64,000 bases of DNA from Seleniivibrio woodruffii (GTDB lineage Bacteria > Chrysiogenota > Deferribacteres > Deferribacterales > Geovibrionaceae), in assembly GCF_029267515.1 (NCBI RefSeq), contig NZ_JAJUIS010000005.1, positions 62,001 to 126,000 on the forward strand, read 5' to 3'. The position numbers and the translations under genes are program-made. Below are positions 40,464 through 47,909 of the stretch, one piece after another (within the stretch, counting starts at the first letter, position 1; every line of letters starts with the position of its first letter). The notes beneath the pieces are model-generated. The model worked only from the letters and a program-made list of their open reading frames with translations, did not search any database and was not told the DNA's origin.

Positions 40464-40782
40464 CTTACACTCCTGAAAAAAGTATTTAAGATACAAACAC
40501 TGTTAAAATCTCAATTACAACAGTTATCATAATAGTGTTTCCATGTCAACCGGATTGTATACAATATACAGCAATAAAATGATAAACCACAGCGTAAACA
40601 GACTATTGCAGAGCGGGACGCAATATTTCATAAAAACATAAACTGTGTTATAAAATTATCAAATAGCCTGTCATAAGCCCGTCTTATTGACAAATTCGAT
40701 ATGCACAGAGGCTCAAAGTCTATTACAGCAACTGTTCATAACGGATTTACATGGAAAACGGCGGAGTTTTCCGCCGTCGGTA
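40464..40782 (-). promoter_or_regulatory. sdh upstream region with candidate promoter
   Basis: This 319-bp gap holds no gene I can support. On the minus strand TTGACA at 40549-40544 is the best -35 for sdhC, with only a weak -10 (TAACTG at 17 bases). A perfect palindrome TTGTATACAA at 40555-40564 lies just upstream and could be a regulator site. The remaining 160 bp is AT-rich. The left end carries the terminator of the phage-derived cassette. Confidence 0.4.
40758..40777 (-). terminator. Intrinsic terminator after the portal gene
   Basis: An 8-bp stem (ACGGCGGA/TCCGCCGT) with a four-base loop, followed on the minus strand by TTTT. It starts 5 bp after the portal stop codon. The T-run is short. 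Confidence 0.7.
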
Positions 40783-41886
40783 TTATAAAGTCAAAGGTAT
40801 GCCGAACCTTCTTGCAACTTCCTCTAAATCCACATTCATCCCCATTTCTTTGGCATCCTTAACAACATCCCACGAAGCCTCCGCCTGTGCCGCAAGCACA
40901 AACTCCGCCCCGCAAGCGCCTCCGAAATTCAGCTCCCACATCCAGTTTACCAGTGTTGCCGTGATTGTCTCCGCCGCCGCTCGCGCAATTTTTCTGCCTT
41001 TGCGTTCAAGAGTTGCCTGATGCTGCGCCGCAAGGGAATATGAACCCGTGGAACCTGTGTCGCTGGTGAGCACCTCGCCTGTTATCGCTTTGGAAATTTC
41101 AGTGTTGCACACCTGAACCAGCGAAGAGAAATCCGCCGAACTCCCTTTTGTTTCAAGCACCTGCACGCTGTCCACGTTTGCCAGTGCCACAGCCGCGTCG
41201 TTCTGGATATTGTACAGATTCTCCGCAAGCTCCCTTGCCCTTTCCCTCGACTCGTCGTCGTCCGAAGATTCAAACAGCGCCAGCACCGTGGGCACCCCGT
41301 ATTTCTCCGCTACTGTAAGCCAATAGCGGAAGCCCGCCTTCTTAAACATCCATGGCCAGTAACATTTGGACAGAACGGGCGTTCCATAGGGATTTTCATC
41401 TTTAGGGCTGTTGCGGTGGACAATGAATTTATACTGCTCCTCAAGGGGCGCAGCCACGCTTCCATCCATAAGAGAAAGCTCTCCGTCGGGGGAAAAGGCG
41501 AACCTGTCAGCCCGTCTTCCCAGCGAGCGCACGGGCACCCAGTTTCCATCTTTCAACTCCCAGACTATCTCTGTTACGGAAAAGCCGTATTCCACGGCGG
41601 ACAGAACATCCTGCAAAAGCCCCTGCACACCCAACCTGTTCAGACACCCTTTGATAAACGCCGCCTGCTCCGCCGATTTGCTGTCTGCGGGCTTAACGTC
41701 CCATTGCATTGAAAGCACGGTATCTTTGAGCTGTTCCAGTTTTGCATAGATATGCGCATCCTGAAGCATCTCGTCGAAAACGCTCATGCGCACTCCGCCC
41801 TTGCCGAAAAGAACGTCTGGATTGGGCATTATGTTTCCGAACCAGCTACCTGTTCCTGCCGTAAGTACGTTTGTAAGTCTTTTCAT
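40783..41886 (-). CDS. Mu-type phage portal protein (DUF935/gp29-like), probably shortened
   Basis: A 367-residue protein. It resembles the Mu gp29 portal family: LEQLKDTVLSMQWDVKP, EYGFSVTEIVWELKDGNWVP, FIVHRNSPKDENPYGTPVLSKCYWPW, AEKYGVPTVLALFE and the late ITGEVLTSDTGSTGSYSLAAQH. It ends EEVARRFGIPL, where family members of about 500 residues continue, so the C-terminal portion may be lost. In phages the portal forms the dodecameric vertex for DNA entry. An AAGGAG ribosome site precedes the ATG; it follows terL by 10 bp and is itself followed by a terminator. Confidence 0.88.
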   Translation of the reverse strand: MKRLTNVLTAGTGSWFGNIMPNPDVLFGKGGVRMSVFDEMLQDAHIYAKLEQLKDTVLSMQWDVKPADSKSAEQAAFIKGCLNRLGVQGLLQDVLSAVEYGFSVTEIVWELKDGNWVPVRSLGRRADRFAFSPDGELSLMDGSVAAPLEEQYKFIVHRNSPKDENPYGTPVLSKCYWPWMFKKAGFRYWLTVAEKYGVPTVLALFESSDDDESRERARELAENLYNIQNDAAVALANVDSVQVLETKGSSADFSSLVQVCNTEISKAITGEVLTSDTGSTGSYSLAAQHQATLERKGRKIARAAAETITATLVNWMWELNFGGACGAEFVLAAQAEASWDVVKDAKEMGMNVDLEEVARRFGIPLTL

Positions 41887-41896
41887 TTTTATCTCC

Positions 41897-43297
41897 TTAA
41901 TACCTGTCTATTATCCTTCCAACGCCTCTGTTCAGACCGGAAAAAGCAGTCTTAGGCGTTGTTTTCTCCCTGCCTGATGAGAGCGCCTGCGTCATGGCAT
42001 CCACCATATCGTCGTGCTTTCCTGAGGGAAAATACGCCGCCTCCTCTATCAACTGCTGAGAGAACGGGGCGTTCCGTTTCAGATATACGTTCCCCGCCTC
42101 AATAAGCGGGCAGACAGCGTTTGCCCGCGCCACCTTACCGCCCCGCGGGTTGACGGCTATCAGTCCGCCCACAGAACCTTTCAAAGCGGATATCACCGCC
42201 GGACCGTTCGCCTTGTCCTCAATATATTTCGCCGCCGCCTGGGGATATTGTTCCGAAAGAGCTCTCAAAGCCCTTAATGCCTGGGAAAAGTCCATGCGGT
42301 CGCGTATCTGGTCTATAAGGTAATAGTCCGCGCCTTTAACGCCCCACACCTGCCCCACCACAAAGTCCGCTCCCGCACTGTCTTTAAACGTCATATCCCA
42401 CGACTGGAACAGCCTGAGACCTGTCGGCGGCTCATCATAAAACCGCCACCATTCCCGCCGGAATATAGCGCCGGACGCAGGAGCCGGACGCTGCTGATAG
42501 AGCGCGTTCCAGACACGGGAGCCGACGGCGCGCTCCATCCGTTTAAGAGCGTCTGTACCGTATTTGTCTGCCCAGAGCGGATCGCCTATGTTTCTGAACT
42601 GCTCGTTCTCTTCCGCTACGGCGGGGAAGCAGACCACCGTCCAGTCCTCTCCGCTCTGTTCCAAAAGCCTTCCGGCGAGGTCGTCCTCGTGCCATCGGGT
42701 GAGTATCACCAGTATCTTGCCGCCTTTTTCAATACGGGTGTACAGAGTGGACTGATACCACTCCCAAACCCTGTCGCGGTAGACTTCGGAATCCGCCTCC
42801 TCCTGATTTTTAAAGGGGTCGTCTATGATTAGCAGGTCGCCCCCCATCCCCGTTATGGAGCCGCCCACACCAGCGGAGACGTATGCCCCGCCCGCCGCCG
42901 TTTCCCATCTGTTTGCGGATTTCGCACCCTCTTTCAGCGCAAATCCGTTGAAAACCAGCCGGAAAACCCCGCTGTCGGCGATGTCGCGCACACGCCGCCC
43001 GAAGGTCTCCGCAAGGCGGGCGCTGTATGAAGTGGCTATCACTCTTTTCTGCGGGTTATGTCCGAGAAACCATGCAGGAAACCGCACCGAGGCGAGTTCC
43101 GATTTACCGTGGCGTGGCGGCATCAGCACCATAAGCCTGTCTATGCCGCCGTTCATAAGCTCCGTCAGCTTCTCCGCCAGCACTCTGTGGTGCCAGTTCG
43201 GGCGATAGCCCCTGCATGTGAGCACGGCGAAGGAGGCGAGGCTGTCCCCCGCCATCTTCAGCGCCGTCAGCTTGTCATGCGTTTTCAAGGACTGCAC
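41897..43297 (-). CDS. terL: Phage terminase large subunit
   Basis: A 466-residue packaging motor if started at the GTG at 43297, which has GAGG at good distance. An open frame extends to 43456, but that part is an Arg-rich shadow of the small-subunit gene. The ATPase has Walker A MPPRHGKSELAS, Walker B LLIIDDPFKNQ and a coupling motif LTRWHEDDL. The nuclease domain has QSWDMTFKD and the final acidic GKHDDMVDAMTQ. All catalytic motifs are intact. It overlaps terS by 23 bp. Confidence 0.9.
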   Translation of the reverse strand: MQSLKTHDKLTALKMAGDSLASFAVLTCRGYRPNWHHRVLAEKLTELMNGGIDRLMVLMPPRHGKSELASVRFPAWFLGHNPQKRVIATSYSARLAETFGRRVRDIADSGVFRLVFNGFALKEGAKSANRWETAAGGAYVSAGVGGSITGMGGDLLIIDDPFKNQEEADSEVYRDRVWEWYQSTLYTRIEKGGKILVILTRWHEDDLAGRLLEQSGEDWTVVCFPAVAEENEQFRNIGDPLWADKYGTDALKRMERAVGSRVWNALYQQRPAPASGAIFRREWWRFYDEPPTGLRLFQSWDMTFKDSAGADFVVGQVWGVKGADYYLIDQIRDRMDFSQALRALRALSEQYPQAAAKYIEDKANGPAVISALKGSVGGLIAVNPRGGKVARANAVCPLIEAGNVYLKRNAPFSQQLIEEAAYFPSGKHDDMVDAMTQALSSGREKTTPKTAFSGLNRGVGRIIDRY

Positions 43298-43715
43298 GGA
43301 TATCCTCTTCCGACAGGTTTTCAAGCTCCGCCTGAAGCTCCGAAAGCGCCGGACGTTTCGAACTGTCAAACATTTCGTCCGTCGCCTTGCCAAGGCAGAT
43401 ATCGCGGTAGTTCTTAACCGTTTTGGAGTGCAGTTCCACATCCCGCAGACTGTCACACCCCGCCAGAAGGTCGTCCGCCTTTTTCAATCCCTCCATGGTG
43501 CTTGTGCAGATAGCCTGCAACATCTGTACGCGATGGGCTTTCAGTCTGCGCACCGTTCTGTCGGTCTCCGGTCGCTTCCAGTGCTTCTCCGCCGCATGTT
43601 TCCGCACGTCTTCAACCTCAGTTTCATAATGCAGGGCTATCTCGGAAAGGTCGTAAACGCCCTCCTCATAGTCCTGCTTCATCTGTCTCCACTTCTCCGC
43701 CGTAGGTCTTGCCAT
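43275..43715 (-). CDS. Phage terminase small subunit-like protein
   Basis: A 146-residue protein starting MARPTAEKWRQMKQDYEEG with GGAGAGG upstream. The N-terminus is a helix-turn-helix-like region (GVYDLSEIALHYETEVEDVRKH) as in DNA-recognising terminase small subunits, followed by a helical oligomerisation region and an acidic tail. Position directly before terL supports the call. It is the first gene of the three-gene packaging cassette. Confidence 0.78.
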   Translation of the reverse strand: MARPTAEKWRQMKQDYEEGVYDLSEIALHYETEVEDVRKHAAEKHWKRPETDRTVRRLKAHRVQMLQAICTSTMEGLKKADDLLAGCDSLRDVELHSKTVKNYRDICLGKATDEMFDSSKRPALSELQAELENLSEEDIRAVLENA

Positions 43716-43789
43716 ATACCTCTCCGTTTTCGTGGAATTATACGTCATAAGCCTTTTCTATATGTTTAAAGATGAAAACCTATGCGGGC

Positions 43790-43817
43790 TTGCATTGAAA
43801 AATCTATCTGATATAAT
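43790..43817 (+). promoter_or_regulatory. Sigma70-type promoter for the Fic-ROK operon
   Basis: TTGCAT (43790-43795), 16 bases, then TATAAT (43812-43817). The -10 lies inside a 13-bp palindrome CTGAT-ATA-ATCAG (43808-43820) that may be an operator. The fic start is at 43904, with AAAGGG as ribosome site. Confidence 0.6.
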
Positions 43818-43829
43818 CAGTTAGATTCA

Positions 43830-43889
43830 GATTACTTCACTCAGTCATCAAAGACGTCTCTGATGTAAGTAATACGAAGAAGCAGTCTC
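43830..43889. repeat. Repeat family R1, copy E (two-armed), in the fic leader
   Basis: The left arm reads GATTACTTCACTCAGTCATC then AAAGACG, and the right arm CGTCTCTGATG through GAAGCAGTCTC. Arms pair partly (ATTACTT 43831-43837 with AAGTAAT 43867-43873; CATCA with TGATG). It lies downstream of the promoter, so it becomes part of the fic 5' untranslated leader. Confidence 0.55.
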
Positions 43890-43903
43890 ATTAAAGGGTT
43901 TTC

Positions 43904-44995
43904 ATGATAAGAAAGGTAATAACGGACAACTATGAGAACGTTCATTTCAGCGATAAATACGACAGCGCAACCGTAGCGGTTCTTGTGCGGGAACTGGACG
44001 TGCGTGCATCCCATTTCACAAAACTGCCGATTGTGTCAGACGTCAGAGAATTTCTCACTGGAGAGCTTGTCACAGCATCAGTTTTCTCAACGGCGCTTAT
44101 AGGCAGACCGGAACTTGAAGAATACGATGTCCGCGCTTTTATAAAAAACGAACCGAACAGACTGGACGAAAAACAGATAAGATTCGTAAACAACATAAAA
44201 CGTGCATTCGAATACGTTGACCGCAACCACAAAACATTCGAAATGAATACGGAAGAACTGCGCAAGCTCCATATGATGTTCACTCTGGACACCGAAAATG
44301 CCCTGCCCGGCGTATTCCGCGACAGAAAACGTCAGGAGGGGAACAGGGACTACACCCCGCCGGCGGCATCCCTTAATCAGCTTACGGAAGATTTCTGCGT
44401 GTGGTTTGCATCCGAAGACATGAAAAAGCAGCATCCTGCGATACGGGCTTTCCTCGCCCATTACCATATCGGGATGCTCCAGCCGTTCACCAGCGGAAAC
44501 GGCAGAACGGCGCGGGCTGTGGAGGCAATGCTTCTTAAACAGAGCGGGCACAGGTACCTGCACCATGCCCTTTCCCAGTATTACAGACGCAACAGAAAAG
44601 ACTATATAAAAGCGTTCATACAGAACGAAAAGACGGGCGGATTCGATATGACTCCGTTCCTTGTCTTCTGTCTGGACGGCGCAGCGCGGGCATACAGACT
44701 GCTCACGGACATGGCTGTCAGCGGGCTGCGCGCAATCGGACTTAAAGACCACATCCGCGCTCTTCGCGCGCAGAAAAAAATAACCGATCGGCAGAAAGAA
44801 CTGCTCGACATCCTTTTCGTATACGAGAAACCGTTCACCTTCGCGGATCTGCTCACCAATCCGATGTTCAGCGGGCTTTACAAAGGCTATACGGAAAACA
44901 CAGCCAGAAACGATATCAAGAGACTGAAAGAACTGAATATTATAAACTCTGCTGACGGCAGGGAATTCACATTCAACCGTTTCGTGCTGGGCTGA
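43904..44995 (+). CDS. Fic-family protein lacking the catalytic His
   Basis: A 363-residue protein with an N-terminal helical domain, a Fic core (about residues 100-240) and a C-terminal winged helix. The Fic motif reads LQPFTSGNGRTAR where the family has HPFxxGNGRxxR: codon CAG at 44480 gives Q193 in place of the His that activates the target hydroxyl. The N-terminal inhibitory helix (S/T)xxxE(G/N) reads STALIG, with I66 where the inhibitory Glu belongs. The GNGR phosphate-binding loop is intact. It may bind nucleotide without classical AMP transfer, or act as a regulator through its winged helix. It lies 2 bp before the ROK gene. Confidence 0.88.
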   Translation: MIRKVITDNYENVHFSDKYDSATVAVLVRELDVRASHFTKLPIVSDVREFLTGELVTASVFSTALIGRPELEEYDVRAFIKNEPNRLDEKQIRFVNNIKRAFEYVDRNHKTFEMNTEELRKLHMMFTLDTENALPGVFRDRKRQEGNRDYTPPAASLNQLTEDFCVWFASEDMKKQHPAIRAFLAHYHIGMLQPFTSGNGRTARAVEAMLLKQSGHRYLHHALSQYYRRNRKDYIKAFIQNEKTGGFDMTPFLVFCLDGAARAYRLLTDMAVSGLRAIGLKDHIRALRAQKKITDRQKELLDILFVYEKPFTFADLLTNPMFSGLYKGYTENTARNDIKRLKELNIINSADGREFTFNRFVLG

Positions 44996-44997
44996 TT

Positions 44998-45888
44998 ATG
45001 TATATCTGTTTTGATATAGGCGGAACAAACATTAAAACGGGGCTTTTCGGACATGATGGCGAGATGCTTGAAAAAATATCCGTAAAAACGCCCTCCGAAT
45101 ACGATGAGATACTTGACGTTCTGGTGCAGGCGGCTAAGAGCTTCAACGGCATATGTGCCTGTGCCGCGGCAGTACCCGGAACCTGTATGCCAAAGGACGG
45201 TCAGGTCATCTTCTGCCCGAATCTCACGGCACTTAACGGTCATAACATCAAACACGACCTTGAAAATGCACTGGACGTTCCGGTTTTCCTTGAAAACGAT
45301 GGGAACATGGCGGCGCTTGGAGAGTATTTTTTCTTTGAACGCAACAACATAAAGAATATGATATTCCTTACTCTCGGAACGGGTGTCGGCGGCGGAGCTA
45401 TCGTCAACGGACAGCTTCTGACATCTGACATCTCACTTTTCGAGGCGGGACACATAAACATCAATCCCGAAGGACCGAGATGCGGATGCGGAAAGCGCGG
45501 ATGCCTTGAGACCTACGCAAACGTGGGCGGGCTTCTGCGCACATATGAGAACCTTTCTTCCGGCGGCATAAGACCTGAAGGAGCAAACAAAGTATATTCT
45601 CTTTATAAGTCAGGAGACAGAGTCGCGGCACTTAGTTTCAACGTTCTGGGCGGCTGTCTGGGAATCGGTATGGCTACGCTGGCTAATATCCTTGTTCCGG
45701 AAAAGATAAAAATAGGCGGCGGGCTTTCGGAGATGGCGGAAGCGTTTCTCCCCAATGCAATCAAGGTATTTTCAAAACACGTCTACCCTTCATACAGGGA
45801 GCGGGTCACAATCGAGCTTTCGGGCTTGCGAAACAACGCCGGTCTGTCCGGCTGCGCCGCAATCTGTATGCTCAACAGAAATCTTTGA
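44998..45888 (+). CDS. ROK-family sugar kinase
   Basis: A 296-residue protein with the phosphate-1 loop CFDIGGTNIKTGLFG, ENDGNMAALGEY, TLGTGVGGGAIVNG and the ROK zinc signature GHININPEGPRCGCGKRGCL. There is no N-terminal helix-turn-helix, so it is a kinase (glucokinase, N-acetylmannosamine kinase or similar) rather than a ROK repressor. It is co-transcribed with the Fic gene, 2 bp apart. No sugar transporter is near to suggest a substrate. Its 3' end overlaps the convergent XRE gene by 17 bp. Confidence 0.9.
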   Translation: MYICFDIGGTNIKTGLFGHDGEMLEKISVKTPSEYDEILDVLVQAAKSFNGICACAAAVPGTCMPKDGQVIFCPNLTALNGHNIKHDLENALDVPVFLENDGNMAALGEYFFFERNNIKNMIFLTLGTGVGGGAIVNGQLLTSDISLFEAGHININPEGPRCGCGKRGCLETYANVGGLLRTYENLSSGGIRPEGANKVYSLYKSGDRVAALSFNVLGGCLGIGMATLANILVPEKIKIGGGLSEMAEAFLPNAIKVFSKHVYPSYRERVTIELSGLRNNAGLSGCAAICMLNRNL

Positions 45889-46487: not shown

Positions 46488-47081
46488 TCACAGGAACAGC
46501 GGTACAAAAACCGGAGCCAGAGCAGAAAGTATGACCCCGTGCACAAAGCCTACGATAGCGGCGCGTTTGCCTGCATATTTCTCTATTACAGGCAGAGTAA
46601 CGTCCATCGTGGTTGCCCCGCCCGGCGCAACAGCGGCATAGGGTCCGAAATATTTCACAACGAACGGTACGCACAAAAGGGTTATTGTCTCTCTGAAAAC
46701 GTTCGAAAGAAAAGCGATAGCTCCGAGGTCGCTGCCCTTCACCTGTGCAATCATAACAGCCGAAAACGAATACCAGCCGAAGCCGGAAGCGATGGCGAGC
46801 GCATCTTTCGGCGCAAGTACGGTTATGAAAGAAACGACGTAACCGCCGAAAAGCGTTCCCAGAATAGTCCCCACAGGCACAAGCACCGTAAATCTGTCCG
46901 CGGACATGAGGGTTTTCATGGACTGCTTGTTGTTCCCGATATCAAAACCGATGAGGAACAGCAGCAGGATAAGCGACCAGTCGGTGAGCGAACCGCTGAG
47001 ATTTAATATATATTCAGGCAGATAGCCCAGATATGCCGCAGAAGCCCCCGCAAGGATGGCTATCATCATAATAACTATCAT
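46488..47081 (-). CDS. LysO-type exporter, C-terminal half (split gene)
   Basis: A 197-residue membrane protein with about five helices. It matches the C-terminal part of LysO/YbjE (DUF340): LILLLFLIGFDIGNNK, VPVGTILGTLFGGYV, ASGFGWYSFSAVMIAQ and APGGATTMDVTLPVI. E. coli LysO exports lysine and thialysine as one chain of about 300 residues. Here the N-terminal half is a separate gene whose stop overlaps this start by 4 bp. It ends the nucleoside-importer operon. The substrate is uncertain in this context. Confidence 0.85.
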   Translation of the reverse strand: MIVIMMIAILAGASAAYLGYLPEYILNLSGSLTDWSLILLLFLIGFDIGNNKQSMKTLMSADRFTVLVPVGTILGTLFGGYVVSFITVLAPKDALAIASGFGWYSFSAVMIAQVKGSDLGAIAFLSNVFRETITLLCVPFVVKYFGPYAAVAPGGATTMDVTLPVIEKYAGKRAAIVGFVHGVILSALAPVFVPLFL

Positions 47082-47350
47082 CTTTCCGCCTTTTTGAACA
47101 GCTTTGTAATGATAAGCACACCGATAATGCTGAAAATCACTACGGAAACGCTCATTATGCCTGAAATTATGCCGAAGTCGGCAATCTTAGACAGGATATC
47201 CCTGTCTTTTCCAAGGCTTACGCCCATGAAAAACAACAGAGCAAGAAGCGAAAAATTGAACAGAGTATTTTTAATTTTTGCCGCGAAGCCAGCAGCCAGC
47301 AGCATCCCCATCATCAGGCCCGCAGCCAAAGCCGCAACGTAAGCAAACAT
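47078..47350 (-). CDS. LysO-type exporter, N-terminal half (split gene)
   Basis: A 90-residue membrane protein starting MFAYVAALAAGLMMGMLLA with GAGG upstream. It has three helices, with LLALLFFMGVSLGKD as the LysO N-terminal signature. The reading frame lies within the last 80 bp of the xpt frame, an unusually long overlap. Both halves together give the normal LysO length, so they probably assemble as one carrier. Confidence 0.82.
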   Translation of the reverse strand: MFAYVAALAAGLMMGMLLAAGFAAKIKNTLFNFSLLALLFFMGVSLGKDRDILSKIADFGIISGIMSVSVVIFSIIGVLIITKLFKKAER

Positions 47351-47909
47351 CGTCGTCCTCAATCTCCTGTGCGGCAAAAACCCGCTTTATCTCGTCCAGC
47401 GTAACTATGCTGAAAATATCTTCCCTGCCCGCCTTGTCTATTATGACGGCGCGCCCTGTTATAGTTGCGCCCGCCTGTTCCGCTATGGATTCTATGGCTT
47501 TCAGAGTATTCCCGCCTGCATAGAAATCATCGACAAAAAGCAGTCTGTCGCCCTTCTGCAAAACCTCTTCGGAAACGTGCAGTGTCGTCTCCTCCTGTTT
47601 TGTGAAGGAATAACTCTTTGCGGAGTAATGTCTTTCCATGGTCAGAGGAATCTTTTTCTTGGCATAAATCATATCGCAGCCTATGTACATTGCTGCTGCC
47701 ATTGCCGGGATTATCCCGCTCGCCTCGACAGTGATGATCTTGTCAATGCTGGTTCCGGCATAATAGCGCGCGATATCCTGACCTATGTGTTTCACCAGAT
47801 TGATATCTACGCAGTGGTTTAAAAACGTATCGACCTTAATAATGTTGTCTGTAACTTTTCCTTTGTTTCTCAAGGCTTTGATAAGAAGCCTTCTGGATTC
47901 TCTCGTCAC
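47271..47909 (-). CDS. xpt: Xanthine phosphoribosyltransferase
   Basis: A 212-residue protein. It follows Xpt closely: NIIKVDTFLNHCVDINLVK, ITVEASGIIPAMAAAM, SYSFTKQEETTLHVSE and the PRPP loop LLFVDDFYAGGNTLKAI. It converts xanthine and PRPP to XMP. Homologous sequence ends near residue 187; the Cys- and Gly-rich last 25 residues are the shadow of the overlapping lysO frame and may be a run-on. It overlaps the upstream permease by 4 bp, joining uptake to salvage. Confidence 0.93.
   Translation of the reverse strand: MTRESRRLLIKALRNKGKVTDNIIKVDTFLNHCVDINLVKHIGQDIARYYAGTSIDKIITVEASGIIPAMAAAMYIGCDMIYAKKKIPLTMERHYSAKSYSFTKQEETTLHVSEEVLQKGDRLLFVDDFYAGGNTLKAIESIAEQAGATITGRAVIIDKAGREDIFSIVTLDEIKRVFAAQEIEDDDVCLRCGFGCGPDDGDAAGCWLRGKN

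What the first reader, a model, noticed from the sequence alone, without database searches (positions are those of the whole stretch)
43904..44995. Fic protein with Gln in place of the catalytic His and no inhibitory Glu
The core motif reads LQPFTSGNGRTAR: codon CAG at 44480 puts Q193 where Fic AMP-transferases have the motif His. The N-terminal inhibitory segment STALIG also lacks the Glu (I66). The GNGR anion loop and overall fold look intact, so this is not random decay. Losing the base and the brake together suggests a non-AMPylating role, such as a nucleotide-binding switch, a different transfer chemistry, or regulation through the C-terminal winged helix.
Basis: partly seen in the sequence, partly recalled or inferred. 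Interest (0 to 1): 0.62.

Follow-up and report, generated by a model that had tools for sequence, protein, structure and literature searches.

The report
Conserved Fic protein without catalytic histidine
A bacterial enzyme of the Fic family has permanently lost the two residues needed to attach AMP to other proteins, and its safety catch, yet two genera have kept it intact for a long time, probably as a nucleotide-sensing, DNA-binding regulator beside three domesticated virus genes.

Summary
ORF 43904-44995 (+) encodes a 363-aa Fic protein (PF02661, 9e-12) with a C-terminal winged helix. The inhibitory Glu is also absent, but its position is G67, not I66.

It is not a strain mutation. All 8 orthologues (Seleniivibrio and Denitrovibrio; 64-93% identical to the window protein) keep Q, have S/N for D/E and keep [GA]NGRxAR, with dN/dS 0.04-0.13. 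The sister clade (35-37% identical) has HPFGDGNGRTAR.

Two paralogues in the same genomes are also degenerate. One lost His independently and its anion loop decayed; the Q193 clade kept its loop.

Most likely it is a pseudo-AMPylase that still binds a phosphate ligand and works through its winged helix. That function is inferred, not shown. Precedents with other degenerate motifs exist (BepC, Bep8, AvrB, Campylobacter fetus Fic2).

The gene is always divergent from a TerS-like/TerL/Mu-portal trio and 1-4 bp from a ROK kinase. TerL and portal occur in 12/12 genomes of the family, TerL in 0/39 others of the phylum; most lack the capsid, protease and sheath families tested. That module may be the more surprising find.

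The parts
43904..44995 (+). Fic-family gene, 363 aa (called FicA here): N-terminal helical part, FIC core, long linker helix 250-289, C-terminal winged helix 291-363
   Evidence: 8/8 orthologues, dN/dS 0.04-0.13
44480..44515 (+). degenerate FIC motif Q193-PFTS197-GNGRTAR (canonical HPFx[D/E]GNGRxxR)
   Evidence: His and D/E positions both changed, N199/G200/R201/R204 kept
44480..44482 (+). CAG codon, Q193 at the catalytic His position
   Evidence: Gln (CAG) in all eight orthologues
44492..44494 (+). AGC codon, S197 at the Mg2+-coordinating D/E position (S or N in all orthologues)
44087..44107 (+). brake loop S62-TALIG-R68; position of the inhibitory Glu is G67 (44102-44104), with I66 the preceding Ile
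44285..44371 (+). shortened target-docking flap, residues 128-156 (low model confidence)
44774..44992 (+). C-terminal winged helix; probable recognition helix 331-343 (ENTARNDIKRLKE region), predicted pI about 9
43749..43903 (.). 155-bp divergent intergenic region: TATATG[TA]TTAA-type box (43759-43769) conserved in 8 genomes, sigma70-like TTGCAT (43790) and TATAAT (43812) upstream of the Fic gene in Seleniivibrio
   Evidence: function inferred
44998..45888 (+). ROK-family sugar kinase gene, directly downstream in all eight FicA genomes, probable operon
43275..43748 (-). TerS-like gene (weak family evidence), first of the divergent phage-derived trio
41897..43456 (-). terminase large subunit TerL; the conserved core begins near 43333, the upstream part of the ORF overlaps the TerS-like gene
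40783..41886 (-). Mu-type portal protein (PF06074)

Best explanation
FicA is a pseudo-AMPylase of the Fic plus winged-helix architecture. Shown by sequence: the general base (His to Gln), the metal ligand (D/E to S/N) and the brake Glu are absent in every orthologue, while the phosphate-binding loop, fold and winged helix are under purifying selection. Inferred: it no longer transfers AMP; the FIC pocket still binds a nucleotide or other phosphorylated ligand without metal; ligand state is passed through the linker helix to the winged helix, which binds DNA. Most likely targets, also inferred, are its own divergent control region, hence the Fic-ROK operon and the TerS-like/TerL/portal genes. 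Rough likelihoods: not an AMP-transferase 0.85; DNA-binding regulator rather than scaffold or other enzyme about 0.5.
For: Motif fixed in 8/8 orthologues from two genera. dN/dS 0.04-0.13 where synonymous sites are not saturated. Anion-loop residues N199, G200, R201 and R204 invariant in the clade, whereas paralogue B, which lost His separately, has a decayed loop (NNK, NGK, NGY, NGH, NCR, NGV, SSE). In SoFic-type structures the motif Asn and Arg contact the alpha and beta phosphates and D/E holds Mg (PMC3667792), so phosphate contacts but not metal or base are kept. Confident fold (pLDDT 86.8); full-length matches to CbFic2 (TM 0.62) and SoFic (0.56). CbFic2 binds DNA, with its C-terminal winged helix involved (PMC10628234). 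The recognition-helix stretch is among the more conserved parts (11/17 invariant, C-domain pI about 9). Divergent arrangement with the packaging genes and tight linkage to ROK in all eight genomes.
Against: No DNA-binding, nucleotide-binding or activity data. A winged helix in Fic proteins can serve dimerisation or allostery instead. No clear palindromic operator stood out in the intergenic alignment, though this was judged by eye only. The best-conserved segment outside the motif helix is 231-262, next to the pocket in sequence, which could equally reflect catalysis or a protein interface. Adjacency to packaging genes and ROK is limited to the Q clade and could be a by-product of rearrangement.
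Confidence: 0.5

Rival explanations
1. Non-enzymatic partner: FicA acts by protein-protein contact, either as a scaffold (as Bartonella BepC does) or by pairing with another Fic protein of the cell, such as paralogue C, to hold it inactive.
For: BepC has a conserved non-canonical motif and acts without any motif residue by recruiting GEF-H1 (PMC7842960). In Campylobacter fetus Fic1 counteracts the degenerate Fic2 toxin (PMC5651007). Three conserved Fic paralogues coexist in each Q-clade genome. SoFic works as a dimer (PMC12249575 abstract).
Against: FicA lacks the inhibitory Glu used for trans-inhibition. The paralogues lie in distant or separate operons (mazG, ftsZ). The kept phosphate loop is not needed for a pure scaffold (BepC works with the motif mutated).
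Confidence: 0.22
2. Different transfer chemistry: the pocket without His and metal ligand still catalyses a transfer with another donor, as AvrB does.
For: AvrB, a Fido protein reported to lack the usual motif residues (PMC7842960), rhamnosylates RIN4 (PMC10866546). Segment 231-262 and the anion loop are almost invariant. A sugar-related neighbour is present (ROK kinase).
Against: No candidate new base found. AvrB belongs to a distant branch and depends on other residues (R266, D297). Gln cannot act as a general base.
Confidence: 0.15
3. Residual AMPylation: substrate-assisted or metal-free, slow AMP transfer that needs no brake.
For: Phosphate-contact residues kept; loss of the brake fits a weak enzyme.
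Against: His-to-Ala removes the toxicity of Fic proteins (Fic2 H184A, Fic3 H147A); here both base and metal ligand are gone.
Confidence: 0.05
4. Degenerating toxin remnant on its way out.
For: Two further paralogues in the same genomes also have degenerate motifs.
Against: dN/dS 0.04-0.13, no frameshifts or stops in eight genomes, invariant motif residues.
Confidence: 0.03

Closest known systems
CbFic2 (Coxiella burnetii, PDB 8cil)
   Same: Same N-domain, FIC core and C-terminal winged-helix order; best full-length structural match by TM-score (0.62); DNA binding shown for CbFic2
   Different: CbFic2 has HPFDDGNGRIGR and TSAIEG and is an active (de)AMPylase; FicA has QPFTSGNGRTAR and no Glu; sequence identity about 17-18%
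SoFic (class II Fic; anti-phage toxin in PADLOC)
   Same: PADLOC SoFic profile matches residues 76-354 (4e-35); same length and architecture
   Different: NCBIfam equivalog cut-off missed by far (42.8 of 550 bits); the catalytic His, the Mg-binding Asp202 and the brake Glu73 have no counterpart in FicA
BepC and Bep8 of Bartonella
   Same: Fic domains with non-canonical motifs; BepC works without catalysis, Bep8 keeps the fold with PFxxGNE
   Different: BepC keeps His and has K for D/E; these are secreted effectors with a BID domain
AvrB (Fido, Pseudomonas syringae)
   Same: Fido fold lacking the usual catalytic residues
   Different: Glycosyltransferase on a distant branch; FicA keeps the [GA]NGRxAR loop
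Campylobacter fetus Fic2
   Same: Degenerate core motif in a network of Fic paralogues
   Different: Fic2 keeps its His, which its toxicity needs

Membership tests
Fic/Doc (Fido) fold family | Fic domain by profile and fold | tested here: met
   PF02661 46.1 bits against cut-off 24; Foldseek probability 1.00 to Fic structures
AMPylating Fic enzymes | catalytic His of HPFx(D/E)GNGRxxR | tested here: not met
   Q193, 8/8 orthologues
AMPylating Fic enzymes | Mg-binding D/E of the motif | tested here: not met
   S197; S/N in all orthologues
AMPylating Fic enzymes | anion loop GNGR plus second Arg | tested here: met
   [GA]NGRxAR in the whole clade
AMPylating Fic enzymes | AMP transfer activity | not testable with these tools
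   needs biochemistry
Class II (N-terminal brake) Fic proteins, SoFic type | (S/T)xxxE(G/N) inhibitory motif before the FIC core | tested here: not met
   helix present, Glu absent (G67) in 8/8
SoFic equivalog / SoFic defence protein | curated model score and active site | tested here: not met
   42.8 against 550 bits; active site lost
Fic proteins with C-terminal DNA-binding winged helix (CbFic2 type) | C-terminal winged helix | tested here: met
   predicted helices 295-307, 313-318, 320-326, 331-343 and a short strand; full-length match to 8cil
Fic proteins with C-terminal DNA-binding winged helix (CbFic2 type) | DNA binding | not testable with these tools
   only a conserved basic recognition helix
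Gene transfer agent (for the neighbouring module) | TerL and portal, vertically inherited across a lineage | tested here: met
   portal 12/12 and TerL 12/12 in the family, TerL 0/39 elsewhere in the phylum; shared neighbours
Gene transfer agent (for the neighbouring module) | capsid and tail genes in the genome | tested here: not met
   PF10124, PF04233, PF10123 absent from 10 of 12 family genomes (G003 and G010 have separate Mu-like prophages); PF05065 and PF04984 absent from all 12; other capsid types not tested

The most novel reading that the evidence does not exclude
FicA is the ligand-sensing repressor or activator of a domesticated DNA-packaging motor (TerS-like, TerL, Mu-type portal without a recognised capsid) that the whole bacterial family has kept for a cellular job, for example DNA translocation or a gene-transfer-like process with an unrecognised container. 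A dead Fic enzyme would have been recruited as the switch.
Probability: 0.13. Interest if true: 0.82.

Novelty: new variant of a known kind. Interest (0 to 1): 0.5.

Why it matters
Degenerate Fic motifs are known, but few are shown to be fixed, under selection and free of both base and metal ligand. This group gives a clean natural contrast: a sister clade with the full motif, a paralogue whose whole pocket decayed after His loss, and a clade that lost His, D/E and brake but kept the phosphate loop. It makes the question 'what is a FIC pocket for when it cannot AMPylate' testable in free-living bacteria. The linkage to a family-wide terminase-portal module without a recognised capsid adds a second open question.

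Tried and rejected
Another His as catalytic residue: rejected, gapless motif alignment and equivalent model position. Sporadic mutation: rejected. One ancestral Q shared by FicA and paralogue B: rejected, AU p about 3e-39 when all Q rows are forced together, so Q arose at least twice (long branches noted). Viral origin of the Q-Fic: no relative in IMG/VR; three pattern hits there are not Fic proteins; only distant Fic proteins in phages and plasmids (at most 27.9% identity in the listed rows). FicA as part of an intact prophage: rejected, only TerS-like, TerL and portal are there and they are inherited with the chromosome. Phage genes beside the other Fic paralogues: none recognised, housekeeping context. 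In one search the dN/dS line for TerL G000-G002 is a frame error of mine and is ignored. The broad pattern was too loose to be informative alone.

Full report
Observation. The ORF 43904-44995 (+) is open and reads ...FLAHYHIGMLQPFTSGNGRTARAVEA.... It is a Fic protein by Pfam. By PADLOC it is closest to the SoFic group, and it matches one PHROG of unknown function over most of its length, although it is far below the NCBIfam SoFic equivalog cut-off (42.8 of 550 bits). The CAG at 44480 encodes Q193 at the position of the catalytic His. The alignment also shows that S197 sits where canonical enzymes have the Mg-binding Asp/Glu.

Is it fixed? The window belongs to a 2.83-Mb genome of a Seleniivibrio-like bacterium; orthologous contigs are titled Seleniivibrio, Denitrovibrio and Deferribacteraceae MAGs. 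Among the 101 genomes searched (own plus 100 relatives), eight (five of the window's genus counting its own, three of the Denitrovibrio genus) carry an orthologue; the seven others are 64-93% identical to the window protein, and all eight read LQPF[TSI][SN][GA]NGR[TV]AR. dN/dS is 0.04-0.13 where synonymous sites are not saturated, comparable to the neighbouring genes. The nearest relatives, in two other genera of the family, are 35-37% identical in the search and have I/L-HPFGDGNGRTAR. On the tree the Q clade and the HPF clade are sisters with full support. In 77 genomes of an unrelated phylum the Q pattern is absent and the H pattern occurs 19 times, always with D/E.

Paralogues. The Q-clade genomes each carry two more Fic paralogues. 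Paralogue C, near ftsZ, keeps His but has T/S/V/A in place of D/E (HPFF[TSVA][GA]NGRTAR), with E or D at the brake. Paralogue B, downstream of mazG, has lost His too (Q in seven genomes, R in one; L or Y in the related proteins of the other two genera) and its anion loop has decayed in most. A single origin of Q in A and B is rejected. The contrast matters: after losing His, B's phosphate loop fell apart, whereas FicA's N199, G200, R201 and R204 are invariant. That argues that the FicA pocket still holds a phosphate-bearing ligand.

Structure. The AlphaFold model of FicA is good (pLDDT 86.8). Q193 follows helix 178-192 exactly as H195 of the HPF sister follows helix 180-194. Full-length matches are CbFic2 (TM 0.62), SoFic and other Fic proteins with a C-terminal domain. 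In SoFic-type structures the motif Asn contacts the alpha phosphate, the Arg the beta phosphate and the D/E the Mg ion (PMC3667792). FicA therefore keeps the phosphate contacts and loses metal and base.

Neighbourhood. In all eight Q-clade genomes the gene is followed 1-4 bp later by a ROK kinase gene and is divergent, across a short intergenic region (155 bp in the window), from TerS-like, TerL and Mu-type portal genes. The HPF relatives are not next to these genes, although portal, TerL, ROK, ftsY and smc lie within about 28 kb of them. Portal and TerL are present in all 12 family genomes, and TerL in none of 39 other genomes of the phylum. Purifying selection acts on them. Two genomes have separate Mu-like prophages; the other ten lack Mu-type capsid, F protein and protease, and none of the 12 has an HK97 capsid or tail sheath of the tested Pfam families. 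This looks like a domesticated packaging module; calling it a gene transfer agent would need capsid and tail genes that were not found.

Mechanism. Shown: loss of base, metal ligand and brake; constraint on phosphate loop, fold and winged helix; stable neighbourhood. Inferred from established Fic biochemistry: no AMP transfer (His-to-Ala mutation removes toxicity in Fic2 and Fic3). Inferred by analogy to CbFic2: DNA binding through the winged helix. Inferred from position: control of the divergent region. Order of loss: a Fic toxin that lost its brake first would be expected to be harmful, so the base was probably lost first or another control existed; three HPF sister proteins with Gln at the brake position (G006, G008, G010) show that brake loss alone also happens in this group.

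Known or new? Fic proteins with non-canonical motifs are known: BepC works without its catalytic residues (PMC7842960), Bep8 has PFxxGNE (PMC8401265), C. fetus Fic2 is degenerate but needs its His (PMC5651007), AvrB is a rhamnosyltransferase (PMC10866546). My literature searches in the held library turned up no paper on a conserved His-to-Gln clade with intact GNGR and winged helix, but they were few and most subscription papers are not held. I therefore rate it a new variant of a known kind.

Noticed in passing
window 40783-43748 (-): TerS-like, TerL and Mu-type portal genes form a vertically inherited module; TerL and portal are present in 12/12 genomes of the family (single copy apart from two extra, distant portal hits in G003 and G010 prophages) and TerL is in 0/39 others of the phylum; the capsid, protease and sheath families tested are absent from 10 of 12 genomes. 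May be a capsid-less domesticated packaging motor.
   Followed up: partly
L053:9335-10414 (G000:C13) and orthologues: Second Fic paralogue (B) downstream of mazG also lost the catalytic His independently (IQPFHTANNKTA in the window's genome), with a decayed anion loop but dN/dS 0.03-0.17.
   Followed up: partly
L054:9266-10366 (G000:C32) and orthologues: Third Fic paralogue (C) near ftsZ keeps His but has T/S/V/A for the motif D/E in all eight genomes: HPFF[TSVA][GA]NGRTAR.
   Followed up: partly
L046, L047, L048: HPF-type sister Fic proteins of three genomes have an intact active-site motif but Gln in place of the inhibitory Glu (TVQK), i.e. apparently unbraked.
   Followed up: no
window 40496-40783 compared with L041:3250-5651: A sensor-kinase and response-regulator gene pair (LytS/LytT-like by eye) sits between sdhC and the portal gene in a sister genome and is missing from the window.
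   Followed up: no
window 46488-47377 (-): The lysine exporter LysO appears to be encoded as two short overlapping ORFs, conserved in this form in the genus.
   Followed up: no
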